Under the pieces are notes generated by a model. It was given only the letters and a program-made list of their open reading frames with translations. It was not told the origin of the DNA and searched no databases. 64,000 nt of DNA from Cordylochernes scorpioides (Eukaryota > Arthropoda > Arachnida > Pseudoscorpiones > Chernetidae). Shown in pieces: positions 1,584 to 62,283 of the stretch (within the stretch, counting starts at the first letter, position 1; every line of letters starts with the position of its first letter). Location: assembly GCA_030710605.1 (NCBI GenBank), contig CP092863.1, forward strand, positions 138,478,994 through 138,542,993. The letters run 5' to 3'. Made by a program: the position numbers and the translations under genes.

Positions 1584-1783
1584 TATAGATTGGCTTTGGT
1601 TTAATTTGCATAAAATGGTGGTTTATTCTTTATCACTACCTTAACGTTCTGTACCTGGATGATGAACCAAAAGGTTTTGTTTTAATGCTTTTTTTAAATG
1701 GTATAGGTGACTCTTTTGATACATGTTTATAAGTAGTTCTTTATTTATATTTCAAGGAGCTTATGTTAGATTTTGTAATGCAG

Positions 1784-1844
1784 GAGAAGTCGTCTGGGGA
1801 GGAGCGACTTTTCTCACATTTACTGACACCAACCGCACCTTGAG
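1784..1844 (+). CDS. z-type cassette exon (61 nt), orphan unit 0
   Basis: The segment lies between TTTTGTAATGCAG and GTAAGATC, good acceptor and donor matches. In the frame set by exon Y (one base completes the split codon) it reads RSRLGRSDFSH and stops within four codons. Closely related copies occur at 17562, 33182 and 42696. Unit 0 has no X or Y, so this copy may be unused. An alternative is a structured RNA module: GTCG and CGAC flank a UGGG-containing loop. Confidence 0.45.
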
Positions 1845-2216
1845 GTAAGATCTTGGTATACAGATTGTCTTAGGGCTTAATTTGCATAAACTGGTGTTGT
1901 GGATCATTTTTTAATCATAACCTTAACGTCCTATGCTGGAGTGATGAACCAAAAAGCTTTATTTTTTTAACGTTAGAGGTGACTCTCTCTCTCTCTCTTG
2001 ATTCCTATTTGCAAACATTGTATTACGATGCACTAGCGTGCCATCTGTTATGAAAATTAGAAACAATTTTAGACGCGTAAGATTCTTTTAGAAATTAAAC
2101 AATTTCTACTGCCCTTACTGCAGTGGAAACATTTATTGATTTTGTGATATTTGAGAAAAAAAACTGAATTTTATCAATCAAACTACAAGATGTTTGAGAT
2201 AGATTATGTAATGCAG

Positions 2217-2358
2217 CAGGAGTCGTCTGGGCAGCGGCGATCCATCCACTGACATCAACCGCACCACGGGACAAGACCAGCAAAGATTGGGGGACATCCT
2301 TGTCGGCGATGTCTTTGCGGAACTGTAGCATGGCACACGCCGGGGCAAATTTCTATCT
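2217..2358 (+). CDS. W-type cassette exon (142 nt), orphan unit 0
   Basis: Bounded by TAATGCAG and GTAAGTAG. In the Y-compatible frame it reads RSRLGSGDPSTDINRTTGQ and continues DQQRLGDILVGDVFAEL to a TAG, 38 nt before the donor. All four W copies (2217, 18875, 41977 reverse, 60858 reverse) keep this frame open and stop at the same TAG despite amino-acid changes. That fits a coding last or next-to-last exon. A GACAAG/CTTGTC pair around a GATTGGGGG loop is also conserved. Confidence 0.5.
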
Positions 2359-2605
2359 GTAAGTAGAACTGAGTTGATCAACCATATTATGTTACATATG
2401 ATTACTGTGGCCAATATCAGATACCAGAGTTCTAGTCTTTTAAAAATTATTTTCGGCCTCTTTACTAAGATCAAATGGTAGCTTTGGCTTGAAGGATTGT
2501 ATTTATAATAAGCATGTTTTTTAAAATAGATTATTTTTCGAAAATTCATAATCTCTTTCATCCTATTATTTGAAGAAAAAAGCATTCAGGAATAGGTTTT
2601 TTGTA

Positions 2606-2790
2606 CAGTAGAACTTCTCAGTAAAGAACAATACCTAGTTGCAGAGATAAATTGTCATTTAGAAAGAAGTATCCTCTTACCTGAGAGTTGCTAATTAGTA
2701 AAAATGGTAATTTCGGGAATAAAAGCTGACCTTTATAGAAAGAGATGTCCTCTATCGTGAGGGTAGTGCCCTCTAATGGAGGTTCTACTG
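2606..2790 (+). mobile_element. pogo/Tigger-like MITE between exons W and V
   Basis: Runs from CAGTAGAACTTC to GAGGTTCTACTG and is flanked by TA on both sides. It occupies the same place in every unit (19263, 41540, 60429), so it was present before the unit multiplied. Confidence 0.75.
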
Positions 2791-2881
2791 TATAAATTAA
2801 CTCAAAGAAAGCCATTCTACATGAGTATTTCTGACTGAATATATGTCAAATATAGTTAGTCAAAGTATTTTGTTATTTCAG

Positions 2882-3022
2882 GAGGAGTTGGAGCCGTTTG
2901 GACAGCGGTTCTCACCATCCTACTGGCATCGCACTGTGAGATAATACTGACGTATATTGGGACGTCTTCGTCAGCGATGCCTTGAAGAACTGAGTCGTCA
3001 CTTATCGAGCATCCTACCAAAC
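2882..3022 (+). CDS. V-type cassette exon (141 nt), orphan unit 0
   Basis: Acceptor TTGTTATTTCAG, donor GTAAGAGC. It is a diverged paralogue of W. In the Y-compatible frame it gives a short tail ending at a TGA about 60 nt in; the homologous frame continues afterwards with a second stop where W has its TAG. Paired arms GAGCCG/CGGTTC and CTGACG/CGTCAG are visible. The function is unknown. Confidence 0.4.
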
Positions 3023-3312
3023 GTAAGAGCATCTTACTTGATCCCGACGTTCTGCTTATACGTCGAGACAATAGTGTCGTATATGAAGACATCTTTTCGG
3101 ATATCAAAATCTGATCATTACATATTGAAGAATTCTCAAGATATTAAAATCAAATTGAAATCAAATTAAATTTAATATGCCAAATCATTGTATTAATCAT
3201 TGTAGATGCCTTTAGCAAAAATGGGAAATTAATCTTTTGTTTCTTTCAAGAAACAGTATAATGATCTTTATATTTTGATGTATTTTTTTTATCAAAAGCG
3301 CGGACATTCAAT

Positions 3313-10682: not shown

Positions 10683-10723
10683 ATGGGCTGTTTCAGCTTC
10701 TGTAAGATTTTTAGACGCAAGAA
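10683..10723 (+). CDS. Exon E1, gene copy A: acylation-type N-terminus
   Basis: Encodes MGCFSFCKIFRRK plus two bases of the next Lys codon, then the strong donor GTAAGTG. Gly2-Cys3 at the start with Cys7 nearby and a basic cluster matches proteins anchored to the inner membrane face by myristate and palmitate, though Ser is at position 5 rather than 6. Copies at 28221 and 50003-50043 encode the same peptide with only a synonymous Arg codon change. The split codon (AA) is completed by the first G of exon X, and that frame stays open. No family recognised. Confidence 0.6.
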
Positions 10724-13982: not shown

Positions 13983-14438
13983 GACTAAGGGGAGAGGACG
14001 CAAACAGGGCATACACACCCCACCTGCCACACCTCCACCCACACCCCTCACCCCCGGCTCCCCATTTCCATACTTTAACGCCATCGACACTAAGTTTGAT
14101 GAGCCGGGGTTCCTCCATTGTAGGGTATACATCCCAGAACCCATTTGGGGGGGCTCACTTGACAACATCCTGTACCCTGACATGCGCCGTCCAACATTTT
14201 CTAGGCACACGTCAGAACATTTCTGGGTTGAGACAGAAGTCCGCTGGCCCTTGCTCAACAGAGATGTTGAGTTTGGGTCATCGGGCTCTGTCCCTTCCCT
14301 TCTGTAGGGCCTCACTATCACAGCGTTAGGTCCAACAGCACAGTACAACATTCGCTCACATAACATGCGCGGGACTTCCATTTACCGCACATCAACACAC
14401 CCTAGTCTTCATGGAGCACCACCACGTCCTTTGGGCAG
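13983..14438 (+). CDS. Exon X, gene copy A
   Basis: Acceptor ATTCTTCCTGTGGTTACAG, donor GTAAGCTA, and clearly GC-richer than its surroundings. The first G completes the E1 Lys codon; the frame then reads TKGRGRKQG (basic), a TPPATPPPTPLTPGSP proline/threonine stretch, KFDEPGFLHCRVYIPEPIWG, SLDNILYPDMRRPTF and EHFWVETEVRWPLLNRD. After 107 codons comes a TAG (14305), also present in copy C. The frame continues after the stop but loses two bases near 14385 compared with copy C. The TP sites suggest possible phosphorylation or SH3 binding. I recognise no homologue. Confidence 0.55.
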
Positions 14439-14882: not shown

Positions 14883-15039
14883 CTGGGGGAGTGAGCGAGT
14901 GTCGTCTGGGCAACGACCTAACCTATTACCATCCAAGTGGCGCCACAACGTGGGGTCTGCAGACGAAGATTTGGGGGGGGTCTTCGTCTGCACTACCTGA
15001 CGGACTTGTGAGCCCACACGCGGAGGCATATTTCAATGT
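14883..15039 (+). CDS. Exon Y, gene copy A
   Basis: Acceptor TTTTGTAATGCAG, donor GTAAGTAC. Two bases complete the codon begun in X; the frame reads GGVSECRLGNDLTYYHPSGA then TTWGLQTKIWGG and ends EAYFNV with two bases left over. This copy has eight Gs in the central G run instead of seven and one G fewer further on, so the middle of the peptide differs from copy C but the frame is restored. It contains a perfect 12-bp hairpin, TGCAGACGAAGA / TCTTCGTCTGCA. It is an older paralogue of W and V. Confidence 0.55.
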
Positions 15040-17356: not shown

Positions 17357-17561
17357 TATATAGATTGCCTTTTGGTTTAATTTGCATAAACTGGTGTTGT
17401 GGTTTATTCTTTATCACCACTTTAACGTTCTGTACCTGGATGATGACCCAAAAGACTTAGTTTTTAATGTTTTTTAACGGGCATGGGGATTATTTTGTAC
17501 ATGTTTATAAGTAGTTCTTTATTTATATTTTAAGAAGATTATGTTAGATTTTGTAATGCAG

Positions 17562-17622
17562 GAGAAGTCGTCTGGGGAGGAGCGACTTTTCTCACATTTA
17601 CTGACACCAACCGCACCTTGAG
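17562..17622 (+). CDS. z cassette exon 1, gene copy A
   Basis: TTTTGTAATGCAG before, GTAAGACC after. In the Y frame it reads RSRLGRSDFSHIY then a stop. It shares its downstream flank with the other z exons, including ATTTGCAT about 40 nt after the donor. Confidence 0.45.
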
Positions 17623-17868
17623 GTAAGACCTTGGTATACAGATTGTCTTAGGGCTTAATTTGCATAAATTGGTATTTTGGATGATTTTTATTACTACATT
17701 AACGTCTTATGCTGGGGGGATAAACAAAAAGCTTTTTTTTTAATTACGTCGTTTTTTAATGGAAGAGGTGACTCTTTTGTAACATGTTTATAAACATTTA
17801 TTGATATTTGAAAAACTGAATTTTATAATTCAAACCACAAGACGTTTAAGTCATATTTTTTAATGCAG

Positions 17869-17929
17869 GAGGGGCAAGGAGTCGTCTGGGGAGCGGCGAC
17901 TTTTCTACTGACACCAACCGCACTATGAG
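17869..17929 (+). CDS. z cassette exon 2, gene copy A
   Basis: TTTTTAATGCAG before, GTAAGACC after. A 7-nt insertion (GGGCAAG) near its start changes the peptide to RGKESSGERRLFY before a stop; the shifted frame reads RSRLGSGDFSTDTNRTMR, matching the start of W. It may be reached by another acceptor phase or be non-coding. Confidence 0.4.
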
Positions 17930-18188
17930 GTAAGACCGAAAACCATGAAATACAGCTTTGCGCTTAATTTGCATAAACTGGCCTTTTGCAACATTTTTTT
18001 TATCACTATCTTAACGTCCTATGCTAGAGTGATGAACCAAAATGTATTGTTTTTACTTTTTTTTTTAAACGGGAGAGGTGCCTCTTTTTGGTATATGTGT
18101 ATAAGTATTTATTGAATTAGTAATAGTTTGAGAAACTGAATTTTCTAATTCAAATCTCAATAAACTTAAGTTATATTTTATATTGCAG

Positions 18189-18250
18189 GAGGAGTCGTCT
18201 GGGGAGGAGCGACCTTTCTCATTGTCTACTGACATCAACCGCACCATGAG
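18189..18250 (+). CDS. z cassette exon 3, gene copy A
   Basis: TATTGCAG before, GTAAGACC after. The Y-compatible frame gives RSRLGRSDLSHCLLTSTAP with the stop overlapping the exon end. Confidence 0.45.
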
Positions 18251-18443
18251 GTAAGACCTTTGTATACAGCTTGGCTTTTGTCTTAATTTGCATCTAATGC
18301 TAGAGTGATGAACCAAAATGATTTGTTTTTAATGTTCTTAATGGTTTAGAACATGTTTAGAAACATTGCTTTATTTAGTGATATTTGAAAAACAGAATTT
18401 TAATTTAAATCTCGAAAAACTTAAGTTAGATTTTGTAGTGCAG

Positions 18444-18505
18444 GAGAAGTCGTCTGGGGAGGAGCGACTTTTCTCACAATCTACTCACATCAACCGCTCC
18501 ATGAG
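18444..18505 (+). CDS. z cassette exon 4, gene copy A
   Basis: TTTTGTAGTGCAG before, GTAAGACC after. The frame gives RSRLGRSDFSHNLLTSTAP and a stop at the exon end, nearly the same tail as cassette 3. Confidence 0.45.
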
Positions 18506-18874
18506 GTAAGACCTTGGTATAAAGATTGTCTTAGGGCTTGAATTGCATAAACTGGTGTTGTGGACCATTTTTTAATCATAACTTTAACGTCCTATGCTGT
18601 AGTGATGAACCAAAATGCATTGTTAATTTTTTATGCTAGAGGTGACTCTCTTTTGATTCCTATTTATAAACATTTATTGTATTACGATGCACTAGCGCGC
18701 CATCTGTTATAAAAATTAGAAACAATTTTAGACGCGTAAGATTCTTTTAGAAATTAAACAATTTCTACTGCCCTTACTGCAATGGAAACATTTATTGATT
18801 TTGTGATATTTGAGAAAAAAACTGAATTTTATCAATCAAACTACAAGATGTCTAAGATATATTATATAATGTAG

Positions 18875-19013
18875 GAGTCGTCTGAGCAGCGGCGACCCAT
18901 CCACTGATATCAACTGCACTACTGGACAAGACCGGCAAAGATTGGGAGACATCCTTGTCGGAAATGTCTTTACGGAACTGTAGCATGGCAGACGCCGGGG
19001 CATATTTCTATCT
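18875..19013 (+). CDS. W cassette exon, gene copy A
   Basis: Acceptor TATAATGTAG (weaker, the CAG has become TAG) and donor GTAAGTAG. One base completes the Y codon; the frame reads SRLSSGDPSTDINCTTGQ then DRQRLGDILVGNVFTEL and the conserved TAG. It starts three bases later than the other W copies but keeps phase. The GACAAG/CTTGTC pairing is intact. Confidence 0.5.
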
Positions 19014-19262
19014 GTAAGTAGAACTGAGTTTATCAACCATACTATATTACATATTTACTGTGGCCAATATCAGATACCAGAGTTCTAGTCTTATAAAAAT
19101 TGCTTTTCGAACTTTTGACTAAGATCAAAGTGTAGCTTGGACTTGAAGGATTGTATTAAAATAAGCATATGTTTTTAATGGATTCTTTCTCGAATAATTA
19201 TAATCCCTTTTATCATATAATTTGAGCCAAAAAATCATCCGAGAATAAGTTTTTTTTTTCTT

Positions 19263-19447
19263 CAGTAGAACTTTTCAGTAAAGAACAATAACTATTTTCA
19301 GAGCTAAATTGTCCTTTAGAAAGAAGTATCCTCTTACCTTAGAGTTGCTAATTAGTAAAATTCATAATTTCGGGAATGAAAGCTGTCCTTTATAGAAAGA
19401 GGAGTCCTCTATCGTGAGGGGAGTGTCCTCTCATGGAGGTTCTACTG
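19263..19447 (+). mobile_element. pogo/Tigger-like MITE between W and V
   Basis: Same position as 2606-2790 in unit 0. Ends CAGTAGAACTTT and GAGGTTCTACTG. Confidence 0.7.
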
Positions 19448-19538
19448 TATAAATTAACTCAAAGAGAGCCATTCTACATGAGTATTTCTGACTAAATATA
19501 TGTTAAATATAATTAGCCAATGTATTTTGTTATTTCAG

Positions 19539-19679
19539 GAGGAATTGGAGTCGTTTGGGCAGCGGCTCTCACCATCCTACTAGCATCGTACTGTGAGACA
19601 AGACTGACGGGGATTGGAGCATCTTCGTCAGCGATGCCTTGAAGAACGGAGTCGTCACTTATCGAGCATCTTACCAAAC
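19539..19679 (+). CDS. V cassette exon, gene copy A
   Basis: Acceptor TTGTTATTTCAG, donor GTAAGATC. The Y-compatible frame reads RNWSRLGSGSHHPTSIVL and stops. The first stem GAGTCG/CGGCTC and second stem CTGACG/CGTCAG are kept while single bases differ from the 2882 copy. Confidence 0.42.
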
Positions 19680-19964
19680 GTAAGATCATCTTACTTGATC
19701 CAGACGTTCTGTTTATACGTCGAGACAATGGTATCATATATGAAGACATCTTATCAGATATCAAAATCTGAGTATTACATATTGAAGCATCTTCAAGATA
19801 TTAAAATCAAATTGAACTCAAATGAAATTTAATATGCCAAATCAATGTATTAATCATTGTAGATGTCTTTAGAAAAAAAAATTGGAAATGATCTTTTGCT
19901 TCTTTGAAGAAGCAATATATTGATCTTTATATTTTGATGTACTCTTCTACCGCGAGTATTCAAT

Positions 19965-28220: not shown

Positions 28221-28261
28221 ATGGGCTGTTTCAGCTTCTGTAAGATTTTTAGACGGAAGAA
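28221..28261 (+). CDS. Exon E1, gene copy B
   Basis: Same peptide as copy A (MGCFSFCKIFRRK + AA) with CGG for CGC at Arg12 and donor GTAAGTG. The leader with GCGAGCGAGCAAGC motifs is also conserved. The exon is intact although exon X of this copy is damaged. Confidence 0.55.
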
Positions 28262-31668: not shown

Positions 31669-32122
31669 GACTAAGGGAGAGGACGCAAACAGGGCATACA
31701 CACCCCACCTGCCACACCTCCACCCACACCCCTCACCCCCGGCTCCCCATTTCCATATTTTAACGCCATCGACACTAAGTTTGATGAGCCGGGGTTCCTC
31801 CATTGTAGGGTATACATCCCAGAACCCATTTGGGGGGCTCACTTGACAACATCCTGTACCCTGACATGCGCCGTCCAACATTTTCTAGGCACACGTCAGA
31901 ACATTTCTGGGTTGAGACAGAAGTCCGCTGGCCCTTGCTCAACAGAGATGTTGAGTTTGGGTCATCGGGCTCTGTCCCTTCCCTTCTAGGGCCTCACTAT
32001 CACAGCGTTAGGTCCAACAGCACAGTACAACATTCGCTCACATAACATGCGCGGGACTTCCATCTTACCCGCACATCAACACACCCTAGTCTTCATGGAG
32101 CACCACCACGTCCTTTGGGCAG
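31669..32122 (+). pseudogene. Exon X, gene copy B (frameshifted)
   Basis: Acceptor and donor are intact and the DNA is almost the same as copies A and C, but one G is missing near the start (CTAAGGGAG for CTAAGGGGAG), one in the TTTGGGGGG run (six for seven), and two bases at the stop site (CTTCTAGGG). Translation from E1 would leave the ancestral frame within five codons. This copy is probably inactive unless these are assembly errors in homopolymers. Confidence 0.6.
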
Positions 32123-32570: not shown

Positions 32571-32726
32571 CTGGGGGAGTGAGCAAGTGTCGTCTGGGCA
32601 ACGACCTAACCTATTACCATCCAATTGGCGCCATAACGTGGAGAGGCAGACGAAGATTTGGGGGGGTCTTCGTCTGCACTACCTGACGGGACTTGTGAGC
32701 CCACACGCGGAGACATATGTCAATGT
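32571..32726 (+). pseudogene. Exon Y, gene copy B
   Basis: Splice borders kept (GTAATGCAG / GTAAGTAC). One base is lost in the GTGGAGAGGCAGACG region relative to copies A and C, which shifts the frame in the middle. The TCTTCGTCTGC hairpin arm and its partner GCAGACGAAGA remain paired. Confidence 0.5.
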
Positions 32727-33181
32727 GTAAGTACATCTACATTGTTGAATGAGACTTTGTTTCTCTGCCTTAGCAATTATTTAGACCGATGTCACACCAA
32801 AGATCTCTAAGAAACCTTCATAGGCCAACACAACATGGAAACAGGTCATAAGTCCAATTTAAAAGAATTAAAATGTCATTATAGAGAAATATAGTATCAA
32901 AACCAGAAAGGCTATACTTAGAAACTTATACATCATCTAAATTCTAAAGTATAAATATAAAAATTGATCATCCCCCTACAATTTGTAAATATAATAAAAT
33001 AATTGCAACTTTAAGACAAGATTTTCCCTAGCCCTGCAATGATTGTATCACGGTCTGGCCTAGTGTATAGCTATATCTCTCCTAAAGTGTTTTTCTTTAA
33101 ATAGGACCGTAGAAGAGTGTTCTCTAAATATCCAAAGGCTTTATTTATTTTATTCAAAGGCAATTATATTTTGTAATGCAG
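32727..33181 (+). other. Shortened intron after Y, copy B
   Basis: Only about 455 bp separate Y from the first z exon here, against about 2.5 kb in copies A and C. The 219-bp and 111-bp repeat regions and the MITE are missing, so copy B has a deletion. Confidence 0.6.
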
Positions 33182-33242
33182 GAGAAGTCGTCTGGGGAGG
33201 AGCGACTTTTCTCACATTTACTGACACCAACCGCACCTCGAG
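33182..33242 (+). CDS. z cassette exon, gene copy B
   Basis: ATTTTGTAATGCAG before and a weakened donor GTAAAGAC after. Peptide in the Y frame as at 17562. Confidence 0.4.
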
Positions 33243-33495
33243 GTAAAGACCTTGTTATACAGATTGTCTTAGGGCTTAATTTGCATAAATTGGTATCTTG
33301 AATCATTATTATCACTACAGTAACGTCTTATGCTGGGTGATAAACCAAAATGATTTATTTTAAATGCATTTTTAACGAGAGGCGTGTCATTTTTGGTACA
33401 TGTTTATAAACATTTATCGTTTTGTGATATTTGAAAAACTGAAACAAATTTAATAATTCAAATCCTAATAGGTTTAAGATAGATTTGTAATGCAG

Positions 33496-33563
33496 GAGGG
33501 CGAGGAGTCGTCTGGGCAGCGGCGACCTTTCTATACATCTACTAAGACCAACCGCACAATGAG
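33496..33563 (+). CDS. z cassette exon, gene copy B
   Basis: TTTGTAATGCAG before, GTAAGACC after. At 68 nt it is the longest z exon and carries the GGGCGAG insertion seen at 17869. Confidence 0.4.
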
Positions 33564-33820
33564 GTAAGACCGAAAACCATGGTATGCAGTTTAGTTTTTG
33601 GCTTAATCTGCATAAACGTGTATATTTTGGAACACTTTTATCACTATCTTAACGTCCTATGCTAGAGTGATGAACCAAAAATTCTTGTTTTTAATGTTTT
33701 TTAACGGAAGAGATGACGCTTTTTGGTATATGTTTAAGATTTATTGAATCAGTAATAGTTTGAGAAACTGAATTTTCTAATTCAAATATCAAGAAGTTTA
33801 AGTTAGATTTTGTAATGCAG

Positions 33821-40949: not shown

Positions 40950-41307
40950 TCGAAGATTTAGAAATGATCATACTTGATGGCTTTGAAAGGTGCGGCAAAT
41001 TTAATGTCCGCGCTCTTGATGAAAGAATACATCAAAATATAAAGATCATGATCTTCGATACATCATAAATGATCATTATATTGTTTCTTGAAAGAACCAA
41101 ACGATTCATTCCAATTCTCTAAAGATGTCTACAATGATTTGTACTATTGATTTGGTATATTAAAAGTCATTTGAGTTCAATTTGTCATGGTATCTTGATG
41201 ATGCTTCATTATGCAATACTCAGATTTTGATATCCGAAAAGATGTCTTCGCGATACTATTGTCTTGACGTATAAATAAAACGTCGGGATCAAGTAAGATG
41301 ATCTTAC

Positions 41308-41448
41308 ATTTGGTAGGATGCTCGATAAGTGACGACTCAGTTCTTCAAGGCATCGCTGACGATGACGTCCCAATACACGTCAGTCTTGTCTCACAGAACG
41401 ATGCCAGTAGGATGGTGAGAGCCGCTGTCCAAACGACTCCAATTCTTC
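41308..41448 (-). CDS. V cassette exon, gene copy C
   Basis: Acceptor TTGTTATTTCAG, donor GTAAGATC (reverse strand). The Y-compatible frame stops early as in the other V copies. The second hairpin arms CTGACG and CGTCAG are intact, with an additional inner GACGT/ACGTC pair. Confidence 0.42.
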
Positions 41449-41539
41449 CTGAAATAACAAAATACTTTGACTAACTATATTTCACATATATTCAGTCAGA
41501 AATACTCATGTAGAATGGCTTTCTATGAGTTAATTCATA

Positions 41540-41724
41540 CAGTAGAACCTCCATGAGAGGGCACTACCCTCACGCTAAAGGACACCTCTTTCTATAAAGG
41601 ACAGCTTTCATTCCCGAAATTATCATTTTTACTAATTAGAAACTCTAAGGTAAGAGGATACTTCTTTCTATAGGACAATTTCTCTCTGCAACTAGGTATT
41701 GTTCTTTACTGAAAAGTTCTACTG
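41540..41724 (-). mobile_element. pogo/Tigger-like MITE between W and V
   Basis: CAGTAGAACCTCC at the left edge, AAGTTCTACTG at the right. Confidence 0.7.
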
Positions 41725-41976
41725 AACAAAAAAAAAAACTATTCTCGGATGATTTTTTACCTCAAATAATATGATGAAAGGGATTATAATTTTTCGAAAA
41801 AGAATCCATTAAAAAAACAAGCTTATTATAAATGCTATCCTTCAAGTCCAAGCTATACTTTGATCTTAGTCAAAAGGCCAAAAAGCAATTTTTAAAAGAC
41901 TAGAACTCTGGTATCTGATATTGGCCACAGTAATCATATGTAACATAGTGTGGTTGATCAACTCAGTTCTACTTAC

Positions 41977-42118
41977 AGATAGAAATTTGCCCTGGCGTGT
42001 GCCATGCTACGGTTCCGCAAATACATCGCCGACAAGGATGTCCCCCAATCTTTGCCGGTCTTGTCCCGTGGTGCGGTTGATGTCAGTAGACGTGTCGCCG
42101 CTGCTCAGACGACTCCTC
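41977..42118 (-). CDS. W cassette exon, gene copy C (predicted C-terminus)
   Basis: Acceptor ATGTAATACAG, donor GTAAGTAG. One base completes the Y codon GT|G; the frame reads RSRLSSGDTSTDINRTTGQ, DRQRLGDILVGDVFAEP, then TAG, 37 codons in all. The stop lies about 40 nt before the donor, close enough that a further downstream exon need not trigger decay. It would complete a roughly 256-residue product with E1, X and Y of copy C if the TAG in X is read through. GACAAG/CTTGTC arms are present. Confidence 0.5.
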
Positions 42119-42371
42119 CTGTATTACATAATCTATCTTAAACTTATTGAGATTTGAATGATAAATTTCAGGGTTTTTTTTTCAAATATCACTAAATCAA
42201 TAAATATTTACAAATAGGAATCAAAAGAGAGAGAGTCACCTCTAACCTTAAAAAAAATAAAGCTTTTTGGTTCCACACTCCAGCATAGGACGTTAAGGTA
42301 GTGAGAAAAATGATCCATAACGCAGTTTATGCGATTTAAGCCCTAAGACAATCTGTATACCACGGTGTTAC

Positions 42372-42432
42372 CTCATGGTGCGGTTGGTGTCAGTAGAAAA
42401 GTCGCCGCTGCCCAGACGACTCCTTGCCCCTC
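42372..42432 (-). CDS. z cassette exon, gene copy C
   Basis: Acceptor TTTTGTAATGCAG and an altered donor GTAACACC. Carries the GGGCAAG insertion, as at 17869. Confidence 0.4.
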
Positions 42433-42695
42433 CTGCATTACAAAATATAGCTTAGGCTTATTGGGATTTGAATTATAAAATTCAGTTTTTCAAATATCAC
42501 TAAATCAATAAATGTATCTAAACATCTACCAAAAGAGTCCCCTCTTCCGTTAAAAACGAAATTAATATTTTTAAAAAAGCTTTTTGGTTCACACACATCA
42601 CCCCAGCATAAGACATTAATATAGTGATAAAAATGATCCAAAATACCAATTTATGCAAATTAAGCCCTAAAACAATCTGTATACCAAGGTCTTAC

Positions 42696-42756
42696 CTCAA
42701 GGTGCGGTTGGTGTCAGTAAATGTGAGAAAAGTCGCTCCTCCCCAGACGACTTCTC
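42696..42756 (-). CDS. z cassette exon, gene copy C
   Basis: Acceptor TGTTGTAATGCAG, donor GTAAGACC. Same sequence class as 1784 and 17562. Confidence 0.42.
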
Positions 42757-42966
42757 CTGCATTACAACATCTAACATAAGCTTCTTGAAATATAAGAAAA
42801 GAACTACTTATAAACATGTTCCAAAATTATCACCTCGCTCATTAAAAAAAAACTATTGAAAACAAAGCCTTTCGGATCATCATCCAGGTACAGAACGTTA
42901 AAGTGGCGATAAAGATTAAACCACAACACCAGTTTATGCAAATTAAACCAAAAGGCAATCTATATA

Positions 42967-43141
42967 CAGTAAAACCTCCCTTTAGCGGACACCCCGCTAG
43001 AGGACACCTCTCCACAACAGAGAGTTTTCATTTGCAAAATTACTATTTTTACTATTTGGCAACTCTCTGGTAAGAGGACACCTCCCCCTAAAGGACACTT
43101 TGGCTCTGCATTTAGATATCCTTAACAGGGAGGTTCTACTG
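42967..43141 (-). mobile_element. pogo/Tigger-like MITE
   Basis: CAGTAAAACCTCCC to GGAGGTTCTACTG, TA on both sides. Confidence 0.75.
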
Positions 43142-43443
43142 TACCATGGTTTAGAACTATGACCCTCATCAGTACAATCAAAGTTTCTATTCCATAACCT
43201 CCCAAAAAAAGGATGTTTTAAACAGGAGAGAAATGCCTCTTTTGGTACATGAATACCATATCCTACCGCAAGTTTATGTTGTATTTTAAACATATAGAGT
43301 AATTTAAACTTGGTGCATTAATGAAAAAACTAGTTATTTGTTCATTAAAGGAAAGAACAAGAAATTATAAACCAGATTTACGCTCTATTAAATTTTATAA
43401 GCTTGATAATAATTTTATTATCATTGATAATATTTTAAACAGA

Positions 43444-43558
43444 AACTTTTGGTATTTAGACTGGTACATAAAGTACCAGTGGGTGTTTCCTCCGAAAATA
43501 CTAAACTTTATGTACCAGTCTAGATACCAAAAGTTAAGTATTTTCGGAGGAAGCACCC
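43444..43558. repeat. Two interleaved inverted repeats
   Basis: Arm A 43444-43474 pairs with A' 43505-43535, and arm B 43481-43502 pairs with B' 43537-43558, one mismatch each, in the order A-B-A'-B'. Forward units have only one B-A' block (about 16828-16880), so a second, inverted block was inserted here. Confidence 0.75.
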
Positions 43559-44189
43559 AAAAACGTTTCAATTTAAAATTCTGTTCATGTCTCATATATA
43601 CTCATGAATAAAACTTAAGAAAGTGGATAGTCTTTGATGTTGCTGGTCGTCTACTTTTTGTGGAGGCAGAGACAATTTTGTTCACACTTGGTTATCTCGT
43701 GTGTCTTCAATAAAGGTCACTGTAATATCTTTCAGAGTTATTGTCTAAATCCCGATATACATGCTAAAAGGTACAACTTCCTTAAGTTTTGTTCATGAGT
43801 GTATGTATATGCATATATTGATGAAGACCAAAGCCTGAAACCACTGTCAATAGTTCACCTTTCCAAAATATTTTGAATATTAAATATGGGGGCTAAGCAC
43901 ATTCTAAGACGATGGCAACAAACATTTAGTAAATAAATGAAGCACTATAATAAAAATCCCATATAACAAAATAGTGAGAAATGCATGTATTTTTTAAATT
44001 TCGAATTTTATAGACTTTATATCTTAATAAAATATTACATTATTTCGCAATATAGTTTCTTTATCACATTACAAAATACAATAATAGCAAGATTTTCAGT
44101 CCAGGTGAGATTTGTCTAGTACTTTATTAATCAACCAGAGGTGATATTGAAATATTTGCGCCTATTACAGAGGAAATAAACAAAACAAC
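43559..44189. other. Intron segment with one 111-bp unit
   Basis: Contains a single copy (about 43680-43800) of the unit that is five-fold tandem at 16150-16735. Otherwise AT-rich. Confidence 0.5.
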
Positions 44190-44985
44190 AAACAAATTAA
44201 AACTTAAAAATTTGTGTAGTAATTCGATGGAGCCCAAATATCTTAAATTTTCTAATTGTCTTTGAATAAAATAAACAAATCCTTTGAGAATTGAGAATTC
44301 CTCTAGGGTCATATTTAGAGATAAAACAGTGTAAAGTGAGAGATAGCTAGAAACTAGACTAGACCCATGATAAAATCATTGCAAGACTAGTGAATATACA
44401 ACATAGCAAGATTTTGAGTCTAGATGAGTTTAGTGTAGAACTTCGGTGGAGCACAATTATCTTATATTTTCTAATTGTCTTTGAGAAAAATAAACAAATC
44501 CTTTGAGAATTGAGAATTCCTCTAGGGTCATATTTAGAGAAAAAACAGTGTAAAGTGAGAGATAGCTAGAAACTAGACTAGACCCATGATAAAATCATTG
44601 CAAGACTAGTGAATATACAACATAGCAAGATTTTGAGTCTAGATGAGTTTAGTGTAGAACTTCGGTGGAGCACAATTATCTTATATTTTCTAATTGTCTT
44701 TGAGAAAAATAAACAAATCCTTTGAGAATTGAGAATTCCTCTAGGGTCATATTTAGAGAAAAAACAGTGTAAAGTGAGAGATAGCTAGAAACTAGACTAG
44801 ACCCATGATAAAATCATTGCAAGACTAGTGAATATACAACAATAACAAGATTTTGAGTTTAGATGAGATAAATGTCAAACTTCGGTGGAGCACAGATCTC
44901 TTAAATTTTCTAATTGCCTTTGAATAAAATAAATAGAGCCTTTGGATATTTAGAGAACACTCTACGGTCCTATTTAAAGAAAAAA
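44190..44985. repeat. 219-bp tandem repeat in the Y-z intron
   Basis: ATTTTGAGTCTAGATGAG recurs at 44411 and 44630, and in changed form at 44850, a period of about 219-220 bp. Units one and two are nearly identical, showing a recent duplication. Confidence 0.85.
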
Positions 44986-45344
44986 CACTTTGGGAGAGAT
45001 ATAGCTATAGACTAGGCCAGACCCGTGATACAATCTATGCAAGGCTAGGGAAAATCTTGTCTTAAAGCTCCAATTATTTTATTATATTTACAAATTGTGG
45101 GGGATGATCAATTTTTATTTATACTTTGGAATTTAGATGATGTATAAGTTTCTAAGTATAGCCTTTCTGCTTTTAATACAATGTTTCTGTAATGACATTT
45201 TAATTCTTTTAAATTGGACTTATGACCTGTTTCCATGTTGTGTTTGCCTATGAGAGTTTCTTATATCTTTGGTGTCTGACATGGGTCTAAATAATTGCTA
45301 TGACAGAGAAACAAGGTGTCATTCAACAATGTAGATGTACTTAC
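44986..45344 (-). other. Intron segment next to exon Y
   Basis: Reverse counterpart of 15040-15380. No features seen. Confidence 0.4.
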
Positions 45345-45501
45345 ACATTGAAATATGCCTCAGCAAGTGGGCTCACAAGTCCCGTCAGGTAGTGCAGACG
45401 AAGACCCCCCCAAATCTTCGTCTGCAGACCCCACGTTGTGGCGCCACTTGGATGGTAATAGGTTAGGTCGTTGCCCAGACGACACTCGCTCACTCCCCCA
45501 G
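45345..45501 (-). CDS. Exon Y, gene copy C (fully open)
   Basis: Acceptor TTTTGTAATGCAG, donor GTAAGTAC on the reverse strand. Two bases complete the Ala codon from X; 51 codons follow without a stop: GGVSECRLGNDLTYYHPSGA, TTWGLQTKIWGGLRLHYLTG, LVSPLAEAYFNV, with GT left over for the next exon. This is the reference copy of Y. The central TGCAGACGAAGA/TCTTCGTCTGCA hairpin is perfect. No domain recognised. Confidence 0.58.
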
Positions 45502-45944
45502 CTGCATTACAAAATCTATCTTAACACTAGTTTTACTGTGAATTTTTCTTTAAATTAATATTATTTATTTATACTTTTTTGATACATTTAAAACGTAACA
45601 TTATCTTGTAAAATAGTACAGATTAAACTGTAAATAATCTTATTATGAGTAACTATAACAGAATCTTTTAAAAAGTTTGTAATAGTTTTTAAGAGTAATA
45701 TTAAATTTAAATATGAATTCTTTCAAATTTTCTATTATTTAAGAAAAAAAAATTTATAATCAAAATAAGGAGAGATCCAGATTTAGCTCTTCTCTCAATA
45801 GAATACAAGTTTTATCGTAAATAACATAACGGTAAACTTTAGGGCCTATTCAGAAATCGTACTTCCGATTGGTTCTTAATTTATTTGACAATTATAATTA
45901 TAATAGAGATTATTGTTAAGAGAGAAAAAAAGAAGATAGCTTAC

Positions 45945-46402
45945 CTGCCCAAAGGACGTGGTGGTGCTCCATGAAGACTAGGGTATGTTGATGTGCGGGT
46001 AAGATGGAAGTCCCGCGCATGTTATGTGAGCGAATGTTGTACTGTGCTGTTGGACCTAACGCTGTGATAGTGGGGCCCTAGAGAAGGGAAGGGACAGAGC
46101 CCGATGACCCAAACTCAACATCTCTGTTGAGCAAGGGCCAGCGGACTTCTGTCTCAACCCAGAAATGTTCTGACGTGTGCCTAGAAAATGTTGGACGGCG
46201 CATGTCAGGGTACAGGATGTTGTCAAGTGAGCCCCCCCAAATGGGTTCTGGGATGTATACCCTACAATGGAGGAACCCCGGCTCATCAAACTTAGTGTCG
46301 ATGGCGTTAAAATATGGAAATGGGGAGCCGGGGGTGAGGGGTGTGGGTGGAGGTGTGGCAGGTGGGGTGTGTATGCCCTGTTTGCGTCCTCTCCCCTTAG
46401 TC
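45945..46402 (-). CDS. Exon X, gene copy C (best preserved)
   Basis: At 458 nt it is the only copy whose length carries one frame from E1 to Y. 107 codons run from TKGRGRKQG through the TP-rich stretch and EHFWVETEVRWPLLNRD to GSVPSLL; then comes TAG (46078-46080, reverse), then 44 open codons: GPTITALGPTAQYNIRSHNM, RGTSILPAHQHTLVFMEHHH, VLWA, plus one base. Acceptor TGTGGTTACAG, donor GTAAGCTA. Either the protein ends at TAG (121 residues with E1), or the stop is read through, edited or a recent mutation. Confidence 0.6.
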
Positions 46403-46526
46403 CTGTAACCACAGGAAGAATACTGTCAGTCCAGTACTGTAAATTATCAATATATTCCTATCAGTATATTTCCCCCACTTTGGTAAACTTTAATAGAGCA
46501 TTCACTCTCTTTCAATATTTTTTCTT

Positions 46527-46689
46527 TTTCCTTTAAGGACATCTAATTGCAGATCCAAAGTTTCCTTTAGAGAGAGGTGTCCTCTTACTATGAGTTGCTA
46601 AATTGTAAAAATTGGATTATGCAAATGAAAATTGTCCTTTGTAGAGAGGTGTCAGCTAGCGGGGTGTCCGCTAAAGGGAGGTTCTACTG
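46527..46689 (-). mobile_element. pogo/Tigger-like MITE before exon X
   Basis: Right end GGAGGTTCTACTG followed by TA; the other end is eroded. Confidence 0.65.
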
Positions 46690-47654
46690 TATCTTGTTTT
46701 GATGAAGTATCAATATACTGTGCTATTGAAAATATTATCTCTGTAAGTATAATTGGATATAAATGCAGGTGATGTGAGATGAACAATTGAAAAATATAAC
46801 TCAATATTTTACACAAGTGAGGTTCAACTGCTTTGTATATTTACACAATGTTGCAATTTTCTTGCCATCGATGTTATTATATCATCTCCGCCATGTTAAT
46901 CTACCAAGTTTGCCATGTTAATAAAAAATAAAATTAAAACAGTGTTGAAATGTGAAGTGAGTATGTGGGTTTAGAGCAAATGCTTTTTCCTTTTATTCGT
47001 GGATACAGTTCCTATATATATATAATTATTCTAGCCAAAATATGAAATTTGTGTATTTATTGTTTTTTAAACTTTAGATAAATATTATTGAATGTGTGGC
47101 CGTTTTGAATACAATTCTATAAGGAAACAGAAATTCTAGAATAAAAGTGAATGATGTAGAATAATATAAATGTCTCTTTAATTGTAAATTTTACGATTTT
47201 TGAATTAAATTGTTATATATGTATGGGATATCAATAAAAACTCAAGTTTTCGTTTGTTATTTATTTATTGTATAATAGTAAACAAATAAAAATCATCTTT
47301 TGAGATAAAGAATTAAAATCTGAGAGAGAGAGATGTTTATAGCAGAATGCTGATGTCTTAATGTCTATGACCATTGTTCACCTGTTTGAATTGGGTCTTT
47401 TTATACTTCAAATTTTACATTTTTATTTCATTCATTTATGCTTATGAGGTGATACAGCAGCGTATATACAATTAGAGAGGAGACAAAATGAAGTAATGTA
47501 GCTGCTGTAATTTTTATTTTAAAATGTGGTATCTCAACTTTATTAATTGATAAGATAATTGTGATAAAATGTGTTGGGGGAAGAGTGGTATAAATCGTTG
47601 AAGATTTCCGACAGTCATGACCAGAAATTGGATTTGTTGTATATATATTAATTA
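46690..47654 (-). other. Intron 1 of gene copy C, X-proximal part
   Basis: Near-identical reverse complement of 117-1096. Confidence 0.6.
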
Positions 47655-48074
47655 ACTAGCCGAATGACCCAGGCACGCCCAGGTTTTACCTGATTAAATT
47701 TATTTATTTAAATACTATTCGTTACAATTATAAATTGGTGCCGTGGATGTCACTCTTGTGAAACGTCCCGCTCCAAACTTTGTGTCAGAGAAGCGATATT
47801 TTTATAAAGAGATGATCTGGCTTTGTGTCTTCTGCTCGAATGAATGTTTTTCTGTTAGAATTTTGTTCCTGCACACTAAAAATGAACTGGCTTCACCCGT
47901 GGTCTCAGCTTTTAGGAATTTTTCCAGATATAATTTTGTATCTGATAATCAAACATGATACAGCAATATTGTCATAATCACTTTCTGACTAAAAAAACAA
48001 CTATTTTTGCCCAGAACCTGTCATTTTTATTTTTTATTGGCTAAAAATCCGATAAATATCTTTTCCAGATTTTT
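47655..48074 (+). mobile_element. ACTAGCC-ended dispersed element, short copy inside intron 1
   Basis: Same left end as 36624. It replaces about 190 bp present in the forward introns (12645-12830) and stops within TTTTCCAGATTTTT. Confidence 0.55.
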
Positions 48075-50002
48075 CAGCATTGGGCACTTTTTTGCTGAAT
48101 AAAAAATTGCTCAACTGCCTCTTGATTTTTTATTCAATCCAATATATGTATTTTTATTTATTTTATAATGTCTTTTTATTACCTAAAATAGTATCAGTAT
48201 AAGATCCAGTTATAATACTGTGGTTATAATTCGCACTGTGCAAGACATCTGCTGCTTTAATATTCCAAGATTACAGACAACAAGAAGGTAATAACAAATT
48301 GTGCATGCTTTATTGTAAATAAAATGTATCTAAAATTCAATGTGTAAATATCTTTATGATTTTTCTTTTACAATACCTTCTAATATTTAGAAAATTTAGA
48401 GGTATGTAAATATTTGTAAATGTGTAAATATTTCGACACGAATTTCCCTATAGGTGATATCGCATTTTGTGTTAAATATCAATATTCCATTTGCAGAGAA
48501 TCCGTGGTAAATCCATGTATAATACATTTCTTTTCCTCCAATTCACCCACACTAATCTATTTATTATCTTGATTGTCTTTATATAATTGTTCTTGTATAT
48601 TAATTACATATTACCATTAAGGTACTATAACTGTTTTTCCTGCATGTATCCTAATTTTCTGCTTGGAAAATCTGTATAAGACTAAAAGGTCTTAATAAAG
48701 CTTTTTTTGTTGTTGTAATATCGATTTTCAAAGAGTAGTTAGCAAAATAATAAAGCTATACCTAACATGATTTTAAAAATATATATTTCTCCTTTACATG
48801 CCTTTATTTTCTTTTGTATTTCTCTTCAATGTAAATACAGTAAACAAGTTCAAATTTTTATAACCTCCATTCTTCAGCTGAGAAATTTTTGCATAAAATA
48901 AAATATCTCAATAAAGGCTTATGTATGCATGTATCATATGTAAAAATGCCTGTCTTTTTATTTATGATTAGCTTTTACTTTTTTATTCTTTTCATTTTCA
49001 GACTCCGAAGTAAAAATACATGTATAGGACTATATGTTTTAATAATGGCTTCTGTGTGTGTTTTGTGTCAAATAATATTAAATAAATAAAATATATATTA
49101 GAGTTGAAATTTTAATGTCTGTTATACCCTGTGTGAATAGAAATAATATTTTTTAACTGGATATTAAACTTGTTATGATTATATTTATGAATAATATTTG
49201 AGGCAGTAAAAGACAATAATAACTATCCTATAACCAAATGTATTTAATTATTCTAATGTAAGACATTTAATCGCGTTTCTATATTTTATTAATAATAATT
49301 TAGAAAATAATTAGAGAAGTAACGTGTGTACCATTCACATAAGAAAACATCCCAATGTAAATATAATTGCTAATTATGTTGAATTTATTTTGTTTTCTAT
49401 AGTGTATTTATAAATTATCCCTTTAATTAATCGTTTGTCAATTTATATTTTTGTTTATTTTTGTCAATAAAGGTTTTGTAATATTTTAAAAATTATTTCT
49501 TCAAATTTGTAGGGTAACGTATATATGTATAATTTTTATATGAAACTTTATTTTTATAACTTTTTTGTAATTTTTAATCAGTCATCACTAATATTAAAAA
49601 TGTAATCAATGCATTAATTTTTCAACTTTGAGTTCTTTCAAACATTATGGTTTAGATATAAAAATATAGAATAAATCATCCTAAATAGTTGGTGAAAAAT
49701 TATAAAAAATATTTGCGTATGCCCCCAAAGGATTATTATTTTCTTATTTTTATCTTTATTATATTTCTTTTAGGGTGTGAATCAATTTGTAATAATTTTA
49801 GAAACAAATATCGTGGAAAATAATTCTTGAAAAACAAACAAAAACCTGTGATTTTTTTTATATTTGAATCAGAATCACGTATAAATGTTGAATTTGTATT
49901 TTTTGATTTTTTGAAATATTTATAAAAAATTATTTGAATTTTTCTATCTTCGTTGATGGAGTATGTTTGCTCAAAGCTGAGGATAGGCAATGTTTCACTT
50001 AC
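48075..50002 (-). other. Intron 1 of gene copy C, E1-proximal part
   Basis: Very close reverse complement of 10724-12645, closer than either is to copy B. No conserved coding. Confidence 0.5.
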
Positions 50003-50043
50003 TTCTTCCGTCTAAAAATCTTACAGAAGCTGAAACAGCCCAT
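50003..50043 (-). CDS. Exon E1, gene copy C
   Basis: Reverse-strand ATG at 50043; encodes MGCFSFCKIFRRK plus AA, donor GTAAGTG. Joined to X at 46402 the split codon becomes AAG (Lys) and the frame stays open. The purine-rich leader (GCGAGCGAGCAAGC) lies at 50044-50130. Confidence 0.6.
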
Positions 50044-55108: not shown

Positions 55109-55139
55109 TTATACACCACAATAACGCTAAATCTATAAA

Positions 55140-55314
55140 CAGTAGAACCTCCATGAGAGGACACTCCGCATAGAGGACACCTCTCTACAAAGGACAGTTT
55201 TCATTGTCAAAATTATCATTTTTACTATTTAGCAACTCTCTGTTAAGAGTACACCTCTTCATAAAGGACACTTTTGCTCTTCAATTAGGTTCTGTCCTTT
55301 ATAGAGAGGATGTA
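55140..55314 (-). mobile_element. MITE next to the LINE
   Basis: CAGTAGAACCTCCATGAGAGG at the edge; the other end is lost, as at 7108. Confidence 0.65.
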
Positions 55315-58212: not shown

Positions 58213-58389
58213 AACTGATCAGAGAGTTTATTAAATATATGTGCAGAATTTCTCTTTATAGATCGGGCTTAATATTTGGTTATATATGAAGATTCGGTAA
58301 TCGATGGGAAATATAAAAAATATTTGAAACATAGCATTCATAGTAATGTGAGGATGGTTTGCATTCAATTATTTTGGGAACATGGTATT

Positions 58390-59860: not shown

Positions 59861-60196
59861 TCAATGATTTAGCAACGATCATACTTGATGGCTTGAAAGG
59901 TGCGGCAAAATGAATGTCCACGCTCTTGATGAATAAATACATCAAAATATAAAGATCATTATATTGTTTCTTGAAGAAGCAAAAGACTCATTTCCCATTT
60001 TTTCTTAAGGGCATCTAAAATGATTAATACATTGTTTGGCATATTAAATTTCATTTGAGTTCAATTTGATTTTAATATTTTGAAGATGCTTCAATATGCA
60101 ATAATCAGATTTTGATATCCGAAAAGATGTCTTCATATATGATACCATTGTCTCGACGTATAAACAGAACTTCGGGATCAAGTAAGATGCTCTTAT

Positions 60197-60337
60197 GTTT
60201 GGTAAGATGCTCGATAAGTGACGACTCAGTTCTTCAAGGCATCGCTGACGATGACGTCCCAATACACGTCAGTCTTGTCTCAGAGTGCGATGCCAGTAGG
60301 ATGGTAAGAGCCGCTGTCCAAACGACTCCAATTCCTC
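60197..60337 (-). CDS. V cassette exon with lost donor
   Basis: The acceptor TTGTTATTTCAG is intact, but the donor GTAAGAG reads ATAAGAG, so it could only act as a terminal exon or is dead. Hairpin arms are still present. Confidence 0.4.
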
Positions 60338-60428
60338 CTGAAATAACAAAATACTTTGGCTAACTATATTTAACATATATTTAGTCAGAAATACTCATGT
60401 AGAATGACTTTCTTTGAGTTAATTTATA

Positions 60429-60612
60429 CAGTAGAACCTCCATGAGAGGACACTACCCTCACGATAGAGGACATCTCTTTCTATAAAGGTCAGCTTTCAT
60501 TCCCGAAATTACCATTTTTACTAATTAGCAACTCTCAGGTAAGAGGATACTTCTTTCTAAATGACAATTTATCTCTGCCACTAGGTGTTGCTCTTTACTG
60601 GGAAGTTCTACT
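60429..60612 (-). mobile_element. pogo/Tigger-like MITE between W and V
   Basis: CAGTAGAACCTCC to AAGTTCTACTA. Confidence 0.7.
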
Positions 60613-60857
60613 ATACAAAAAATAATTCCTGAATGTTTTTTCTTGAAATAGTAGGATGAAAGAGAGTATGAATATTCGAAAAATAAACCATTAAAAAACA
60701 TGCTTGTTATAAATGCTATCTTTCAAGTCCAAGCTACACTTTGATCCTAACCAAAAGGCCGAAAAGCAATTTTTACAAGATTAAAACTTAGGTATCTGAT
60801 ATTGGCCACAGTAATCACATGTAACATAATATGGTTGATCAACTCAGTTCTACTTAC

Positions 60858-60999
60858 AGATAGAAATTTGCCCCGGCGTCTGCCATGCTACAGTTCCGTA
60901 AAGACATTGCCGACAAGGATGTCCCCCAATCTTTGCCGATCTTGTCCCATTTTGCGGTTGATGTTAGTGGTTGGGTCGCCGCTGCCCAGACCACTCCTC
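60858..60999 (-). CDS. W cassette exon, fourth copy
   Basis: Acceptor TTATGTAATGCAG, donor GTAAGTAG. The frame reads RSGLGSGDPTTNINRKMGQ, DRQRLGDILVGNVFTEL, TAG. Six or so residue changes from copy C but no frame damage. Confidence 0.48.
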
Positions 61000-61369
61000 C
61001 TGCATTACATAATCTATTTTAAACTTCTTGAGATTTGAATGATAAAATTATTTTTTTTCTCAAATATCACAAAATCAATAAATGCTTCCATTGCAGTAAG
61101 AGCAGTAGAAATTGTTTAATTTCAAAAATAATCTTACGCATCTATAATAGTTTTAAATTTTCATAACAGATGGCGCGCTAGTGCTTCGTAATACAATAAA
61201 TGTTTACAAATAGGAATCAAAAGAGAAAGAGTCACCTCTACCTTTAAAAAACATTAAATCAAAGCATTTTGGTTCATCACTCCAGCATAAGCCGTTAAAG
61301 TTATGATTAAAAAATAGTCCACAACACCAGTTTATGCAAATTAAGACAATCTGTATACCAAGGTCTTAC

Positions 61370-61431
61370 CTCATGGTTCGGTTGGTGTCAGTAGATAGTG
61401 AGGAAGGTCGCTCCTCCCCAGACGACTCTTC
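61370..61431 (-). CDS. z cassette exon, fourth unit
   Basis: Acceptor TTTTGTAATGCAG, donor GTAAGACC; 62 nt. Confidence 0.42.
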
Positions 61432-61689
61432 CTGCATTACAAAATCAAACTTTTGCTTCTTTAGATTTGAATTAGAAAATTCAGTATGCTTCTCTCAAGC
61501 TATTACTAATTCAATAAATACTTATAAACATGTGCCAAAAGAGGCACCTCTCTTGTTAAAAATGCATTAAAAACAAAGCGTTTTGGTTCATCACCCCAGC
61601 ATAGGACGTTAAGGTAGTGATATAAAATGATACAAAACATCAGTTTATGCAAATTAAGCCCTAAGCCAATCTATATACCAAGGTCTTAC

Positions 61690-61751
61690 CTCATGGTGCG
61701 GTTGGTGTCAGTTAATAATGAGAAGGGTCGCTCCTCCCCAGACGACTCCTC
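61690..61751 (-). CDS. z cassette exon, fourth unit
   Basis: Acceptor TTTTGTATTGCAG, donor GTAAGACC. The Y-compatible frame gives RSRLGRSDPSHY and a stop. Confidence 0.42.
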
Positions 61752-62011
61752 CTGCAATACAAAATCTAACTTAAACTTCTTGAGATTTGAATTAGAAAAT
61801 TCAGTTTCTCAAACTATTACTAATTCAATAAATTCTTATTAACAGGTACCAAAAGAGCCACCTCTCCCGTTGAAAATACATCAAATAAATACATTTTGGT
61901 TCATCACTCCAGCTTAGGACGTTAAGATAGTGATGAAAATGTTTCAAAATATACAAGTTTATGCAAATTAAGCCAAAAGTTGAAACTGTATATCATAGGT
62001 TTCGGTCTTAC

Positions 62012-62072
62012 CTCATTGTGCGGTTGGTGTCAGTAGAAAGGTCGCCGCTGCCCAGACGACTCCTTGCCCCTC
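62012..62072 (-). CDS. z cassette exon, fourth unit
   Basis: Acceptor TTTTGTAATGCAG, donor GTAAGACC; insertion class as at 17869. Its Y, X and E1 exons would lie beyond the right edge. Confidence 0.42.
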
Positions 62073-62283
62073 CTGCATTACAAAATATAACTTAAACTTC
62101 TTGAAATTTAAATAAAGAACTACTTATAAAAATGTACCAAAAAGTCACCTCTACCGTTTAAAAAAAAAAACATTAAAAACAAAGCCTTCTGGTTCATCAC
62201 CCAGGTACAGAACGTTAAAGTGGTGATAAAGAATAAACCACAACACCAGTTTATGCAAATTAAACCAAAAGCTAATATATATA

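What the first reader, a model, noticed from the sequence alone, without database searches (positions are those of the whole stretch)
41308..50043. Undescribed-looking gene: E1, X, Y and W join in one reading frame
On the reverse strand, E1 (MGCFSFCKIFRRK + AA) joins X (first G), X joins Y (G|CT) and Y joins W (GT|G), all phase-compatible and all with acceptor and GTAAG donor matches. Spliced, copy C has 14 + 107 codons, one TAG, then 44 + 51 + 37 open codons plus the two split codons, ending at a stop kept in four W copies. Four exons agreeing in phase is hard to get by chance. Product: an acylation-type start, a basic patch, a TP-rich linker and unrecognised folded-looking segments.
Basis: partly seen in the sequence, partly recalled or inferred. 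Interest (0 to 1): 0.9.

Follow-up and report, generated by a model that had tools for sequence, protein, structure and literature searches.

The report
Amplified two-exon gene, hairpin-rich RNA tail
The reported gene is real but shorter than claimed: two exons encode a small protein of about 121 amino acids that has close to three hundred relatives in the same genome, the single stop codon is its true end, and the later exons look like untranslated RNA carrying repeated hairpins.

Summary
The window lies in a 2.62 Gb eukaryotic genome, in an array of about 30 gene copies. Relatives fill arrays on several chromosomes (about 290 places by hand count, each scoring only part of its candidates). 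E1 precedes X in five other groups. The X protein is under selection: Ka/Ks 0.21-0.26 for copy C against four C11/C6-type copies (other pairs 0.68-1.01); 20 C16 copies with one protein have 19 DNA sequences.

The 'one TAG' is the real stop: 80 of 81 copies readable there carry a stop (73 TAG, 7 TAA; one TTG). The frame is not kept beyond it: it shifts right after the stop in three C12 and two C16 copies, and Y has a stop in 10 of 22 copies. Y and W share a hairpin with a near-constant loop and co-varying stems, so I read them as untranslated 3' exons.

No relative found in Pfam, PDB, PHROGs, NCBIfam, viral or prokaryote collections. Function is unknown; no transcript data were available.

The parts
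50003..50043 (-). E1 of copy C: coding start MGCFSFCKIFRRKK (41 nt, then donor GTAAGT)
   Evidence: 12 fetched E1 loci of other groups encode MGC[FY][GD]F[FL]K[FC]CR[RS]KK, 11 of 12 with the first GTAAG at base 41
46078..46402 (-). X of copy C, coding part: 107 codons and the true stop TAG (46080-46078)
   Evidence: Ka/Ks 0.21-0.26 against four C11- and C6-type copies; stop kept in 80 of 81 readable copies
45945..46077 (-). X of copy C after the stop: start of the 3' UTR, conserved at DNA level, then donor GCAG|GTAAG
   Evidence: frame not kept
45345..45501 (-). Y exon of copy C: read here as an untranslated 3' exon with hairpins
42696..42756 (-). W1 exon-like repeat of copy C
42372..42432 (-). 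W2 exon-like repeat of copy C (followed by GTAAC)
41977..42118 (-). W3 exon-like repeat of copy C
41308..41448 (-). W4 exon-like repeat of copy C
10683..10723 (+). E1 of copy A
13983..14438 (+). X of copy A; 107 codons intact, stop TAG 14305-14307
14883..15039 (+). Y of copy A
17558..19686 (+). W repeats of copy A (six)
28221..28261 (+). E1 of copy B
31669..32122 (+). X of copy B; frame broken by three small length differences (decay or assembly error)
32571..32726 (+). Y of copy B; stop in the claimed frame
33178..33564 (+). W1 and W2 repeats of copy B, before an assembly gap
1780..3028 (+). W repeats of a fourth copy: its E1 lies left of the window, and X and Y appear deleted (1-1097 matches the intron of C down to 46682, 1226 onward matches C from 43322)
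   Evidence: no X or Y listed there
60191..62080 (-). W repeats of a fifth copy whose Y, X and E1 lie right of the window

Best explanation
A protein-coding gene amplified in tandem. Exon 1 gives 13 codons plus two bases; exon X gives the rest and a TAG or TAA stop, making a 121-residue protein (shown by conservation across arrays; no transcript seen). The protein has a Cys- and Phe-rich start followed by basic residues, a Pro/Thr-rich linker and a short domain with invariant EPGF, GGSL and RDV motifs; from this I infer a cytoplasmic protein held at membranes by its N terminus. Each array carries its own, largely uniform protein version, which suggests homogenisation within arrays plus purifying selection, with copy number supplying dose (inferred). 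Downstream exons Y and W are untranslated; they carry a hairpin with a near-constant loop and co-varying stems, multiplied by exon duplication, and probably act as a repeated protein- or RNA-binding site in the 3' UTR (inferred).
For: E1-X linkage: both in one locus in L009 and the C1 copies, and E1 upstream of X by position in C3, C6, C8 and C18 (sequences). Coding of X: 83% aa identity and no frame break over 107 codons against L009; Ka/Ks 0.21-0.26 in four C1 v C11/C6-type pairs with 46-51 changes each, 26-29 of them at position 3 (p 0.009 and 0.002 for two pairs); 39 listed C16 copies identical in protein over 109 aa, and 20 fetched ones of these have 19 DNA sequences; 7 C16 copies not chosen for identity have 11 silent to 9 replacement alleles; no indel in 327 bases in all 27. 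Real stop: 73 TAG + 7 TAA + 1 TTG of 81 readable copies, 85 loci examined. Not coding after the stop. Hairpin: summed stem score 86 against 66.7 +/- 4.1 for reassorted arms, 0 of 20000.
Against: No transcript data. Some comparisons show weak constraint: C11 v C6 pairs give Ka/Ks 0.68-0.74 and three C16 pairs 0.69-1.01. Within the C1 array X has 12 silent and 13 replacement alleles, not significantly different from Y (11 and 29; Fisher p 0.11; against Y plus post-stop 0.08). X is frame-broken or interrupted in 6 of 22 C1 copies. 20 of the 27 C16 copies were picked because their protein was identical, so its 6/3/28 pattern and 31:9 ratio are biased; the 7 others give 5/3/11 and 11:9. E1 was not found within 8.95 kb before one C16 copy or 3.05 kb before one C12 copy. 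The 72 nt after the stop differ less than the coding part between C1 and C11/C6, a constraint I cannot explain. The arm-reassortment test does not correct for relatedness, and I chose the 17 hairpins by eye.
Confidence: 0.87

Rival explanations
1. One reading: one long protein from E1, X, Y and W, with the TAG in copy C a defect, read through, or recoded (for example edited to TGG).
For: In copy C the frame after TAG is open to the end of Y, and a single-sequence fold of X read through TAG places strands on both sides of it (mean pLDDT 41, too poor to count). One C16 copy has TTG there (L045). 12 of 22 Y copies are open, though 3 of those are frame-shifted (L016, L023 and copy A).
Against: Stop in 80 of 81 readable copies; TAA in 7 copies from three groups, which one A-to-I edit cannot turn into a sense codon. 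Frame shifted right after the stop in three C12 copies and in L088, L089; a second stop after 25 more codons in L009; a stop in Y in 10 of 22 copies; replacement-heavy variation after the stop and in Y (3:9 and 11:29).
Confidence: 0.04
2. The whole unit is a non-coding RNA gene; the E1+X frame is accidental.
For: No codon periodicity in X alone; conserved DNA beyond the stop; structured Y and W exons.
Against: Codon-position pattern and Ka/Ks between arrays, identical proteins from different DNA, TAG/TAA interchange at one place.
Confidence: 0.04
3. The arrays are selfish or conflict-driven amplicons (for instance sex-chromosome or meiotic-drive genes), so that copy number, not the protein's cellular task, is what is selected. 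This can hold together with the best explanation.
For: About 290 places in many arrays, each with its own version; high divergence between versions (44-47% identity to the C1 version).
Against: Nothing here tests tissue, sex linkage or transmission.
Confidence: 0.25
4. The protein was taken from a virus or mobile element long ago and then amplified.
For: Orphan sequence; basic, proline-rich small protein (impression only).
Against: No relative in viral contigs or phages; best PHROGs hit E 0.18, best Pfam hit E 0.14; the copies keep their introns and lie mostly in arrays, unlike dispersed elements.
Confidence: 0.1

Closest known systems
Tandemly amplified, homogenised multi-copy gene families (general class; recalled, no specific relative found)
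   Same: Many copies with shared exon-intron layout, near-uniform protein within an array, different versions between arrays.
   Different: No match for the protein in Pfam, PDB, PHROGs or NCBIfam; 3' part built from duplicated hairpin exons.
Structured 3' UTR hairpin elements with a constant loop and variable stem (class, recalled)
   Same: Loop near TYTGGGCAG nearly constant while stems co-vary.
   Different: Here each hairpin sits near the start of its own exon-like repeat; Rfam has no match at gathering score in the window and none overlapping Y or W1-W4 with E up to 5 in 41200-46500.

Membership tests
Protein-coding gene E1+X | Frame kept and silent changes in excess across diverged copies | tested here: met
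   weaker or absent excess in some pairs
Protein-coding gene E1+X | Spliced transcript joining E1 and X | not testable with these tools
   no RNA data; splice sites and order conserved in other groups
N-myristoylated (MGxxxS-type) proteins | Gly2 followed by a small residue at position 6 | tested here: not met
   Phe at position 6 in E1 of copy C and of the fetched loci; pattern recalled
Known protein family of Pfam, PDB, PHROGs or NCBIfam | Profile match | tested here: not met
   (best E 0.14, one member)
Structured RNA element | Stems conserved by changes on both sides | tested here: met
   17 hairpins chosen by eye, relatedness not corrected
Tandem amplified gene family | Many copies in arrays with shared exon-intron layout | tested here: met

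The most novel reading that the evidence does not exclude
A new family of array-borne genes in which a small orphan membrane-tethered protein is made from hundreds of copies, and whose messages carry a 3' tail assembled from duplicated hairpin exons that a dedicated factor reads, coupling the dose of a conflict- or immunity-type protein to RNA control.
Probability: 0.2. Interest if true: 0.75.

Novelty: new variant of a known kind. Interest (0 to 1): 0.55.

Why it matters
It turns a doubtful four-exon prediction into a defined small protein family with about 290 genomic places, shows where the coding part truly ends, and offers a natural set of co-varying hairpin exons to test whether exon duplication can build a regulatory 3' UTR. 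Whether the family is already deposited as uncharacterised proteins in eukaryotic databases could not be checked here.

Tried and rejected
Rejected: TAG as a copy-specific defect, as an editing site or as read-through. TAG as a hidden splice acceptor (CTTCTNTAG|GGC looks like one): in copies with TAA the AG would move by one base and shift the frame, yet the stop stays, and the sequence before it evolves as coding. Opposite-strand gene: X has an open antisense frame in copy A, but the silent-site excess lies in the sense frame. Open-frame and periodicity statistics on X and Y alone: not significant. A first hairpin test mis-anchored several stems (63.5 v 48.6) and was replaced. A folding z-score script timed out without output. 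Rfam in permissive mode gave only hits below gathering score. A text search for five peptides found 0 papers; a second paper search failed on syntax and was not repeated, so I claim nothing about print beyond. Species not identified.
Full report
What is there. The minus strand of 41308-50043 holds E1, X, Y and four W segments as described, except that W2 is followed by GTAAC, not GTAAG. The window holds three copies with E1, X and Y (A and B on +, C on -). A fourth, at its left edge, has W repeats but no X or Y: 1-1097 matches the intron of C down to 46682 and 1226 onward matches C from 43322. A fifth shows only W repeats at the right edge. X is 98.7% identical in A and B against C, while intron blocks of 60 bases between B and C are mostly 80-98%. 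A and C also share long intron stretches at or near 100%, so high identity alone is no proof of selection. X in copy B carries three small length differences that break the frame.

Test on the sequence alone. Shuffles that keep dinucleotides leave X with one stop or none in 12% and Y with none in 14% of cases; neither exon has codon periodicity. From one copy the four-exon gene cannot be told from chance.

Copies in the genome. After several busy replies genome search placed the window at C1:138478994-138542993 of a 2.62 Gb genome in 24 contigs. Of 40 scored Y matches 36 are 91% or more identical, 30 of them in C1:138.43-139.04 Mb. Of 40 scored X matches 28 lie in that stretch. A protein search finds further arrays on C1 (about 152 Mb), C6, C11, C16 and single or few copies elsewhere (150 of 475 candidates scored). 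Searches with the C16 and C12 versions list about 116 places on C16 (150 of 478 scored) and about 56 in C12:0.13-1.03 Mb (150 of 393 scored). My hand count over the three lists, partial matches included, is about 290 places; the lists are capped, so more may exist.

E1 and X belong together. E1 and X lie in one fetched locus in L009 (C11) and in the C1 copies; by position E1 also lies upstream of X in C3, C6, C8 and C18. All 12 E1 loci fetched encode MGC[FY][GD]F[FL]K[FC]CR[RS]KK; in 11 the first GTAAG is at base 41, in L086 one occurs at base 34. E1 was not found in 8.95 kb before one C16 copy or 3.05 kb before one C12 copy, so the first exon of those groups is unknown.

X is coding. Copy C against L009, L030, L035 and L039 gives Ka/Ks 0.24, 0.22, 0.26 and 0.21. 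Changes by codon position are 11/11/26 (L009) and 10/12/29 (L030), p 0.009 and 0.002. Results that fit less well: L009 against L030 and L035 give 0.74 and 0.68, and three C16 comparisons 0.69 to 1.01, so divergence between versions is loosely constrained or partly adaptive. Within the C1 array X has 12 silent and 13 replacement alleles in 21 copies (L006 left out because its X is interrupted). In C16, 39 listed copies have an identical 109-aa protein. I fetched 20 of these: one protein, 19 DNA sequences, 26 silent alleles. Seven C16 copies not chosen for identity have 11 silent and 9 replacement alleles, positions 5/3/11. None of the 27 has an indel in 327 bases, against 26 of 75 intron columns with a gap. 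The 107-codon frame is intact in 16 of 22 C1 copies.

The TAG is the stop. Of 85 loci examined 81 could be read at that codon (two of the others do not reach it): 73 TAG, 7 TAA, 1 TTG. TAA occurs in the C6/C8, C11 and C3 groups. A codon that changes between TAG and TAA but stays a stop is what selection for termination predicts; one A-to-I edit could not recode TAA, and a splice acceptor at TAG would be moved by one base.

After the stop nothing is kept as protein. Three of three fetched C12 copies and two C16 copies shift frame right after the stop; L009 has a second stop after 25 more codons. Variation after the stop in the C1 array is 3 silent to 9 replacement, and in Y 11 to 29; against X these ratios are not significantly different (Fisher p 0.11 for Y, 0.08 for both together). 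Y has a stop in the claimed frame in 10 of 22 copies; of the 12 open ones three are frame-shifted; lengths run from 153 to 162. Yet the 72 bases after the stop differ less between C1 and C11/C6 types (6 to 8 changes) than the coding part, so some non-codon constraint acts there, unexplained.

Y and W are exon-like repeats with a hairpin. The W segments align with Y. Y- and W-like segments lie downstream of X in C1, C6, C8, C11 and C16 loci (the C16 ones seen by eye); L051 lies elsewhere on C1. Seventeen of them form a hairpin of 3-6 pairs around a loop such as TCTGGGCAA, TTTGGGCAG or TTTGGGGCG; stems differ (GTCG/CGAC, AGCCG/CGGCT, TTGCCG/CGGCAA, GTTGC/GCAAC). Pairing arms at random never reached the observed score in 20000 trials (86 v 66.7 +/- 4.1). 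Relatedness is not removed and I chose the set by eye. A second inverted repeat, GCAGACGAAGA...TCTTCGTCTGC in Y, is visible in printed sequence but was not tested.

What it may do. No profile or structure match: Pfam, PDB, PHROGs and NCBIfam, phages, viral contigs, prokaryote genomes. The single-sequence fold is poor. I commit to a small membrane-tethered cytoplasmic protein supplied by many copies, with a 3' UTR regulated through repeated hairpins; the coding structure is well supported, the function is inference.

Noticed in passing
window 4406-5081, 21093-22157, 38497-39860, 58375-58826: A 57-base minisatellite at four places, with long open frames (427 aa at 38568-39851 minus); repetitive, probably not a gene.
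   Followed up: no
window 22325-23020, 37848-38331, 57690-58208: A 35-base minisatellite contains GCGAGCAAGC, a motif also seen in the sequence just before E1, in the opposite orientation to the nearby gene.
   Followed up: no
window 33844-33943: An assembly gap of 100 N lies in the W region of copy B, before the array changes orientation from + to -.
   Followed up: no
window 9496-9942, 26895-27371, 50746-51231: Mariner-type transposase fragments (Pfam Transposase_1, E 1.7e-6 to 3.7e-7) sit at matching places in the units.
   Followed up: partly
window 54582-55184: Weak match to the zinc-binding domain of reverse transcriptases (zf-RVT, E 1.7e-4, below its cut-off); similar frames at 7456-7839 and 24779-25330.
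   Followed up: partly
window 43480-43559: Inverted repeat that scores below threshold against miRNA families; may be a small transposable element.
   Followed up: no
L045 (C16:40154850-40155750): The one readable copy with TTG in place of the stop; its open frame is 212 aa.
   Followed up: partly
window 45429-45446, minus strand (Y): TGGCGCCACAACGTGGGG in Y resembles a retroviral-type primer binding site (recalled); also present in L049 and L051. Not tested.
   Followed up: no
window 1097-1226: The fourth copy appears to have lost X and Y by a deletion joining intron 1 to the region before the W repeats.
   Followed up: no
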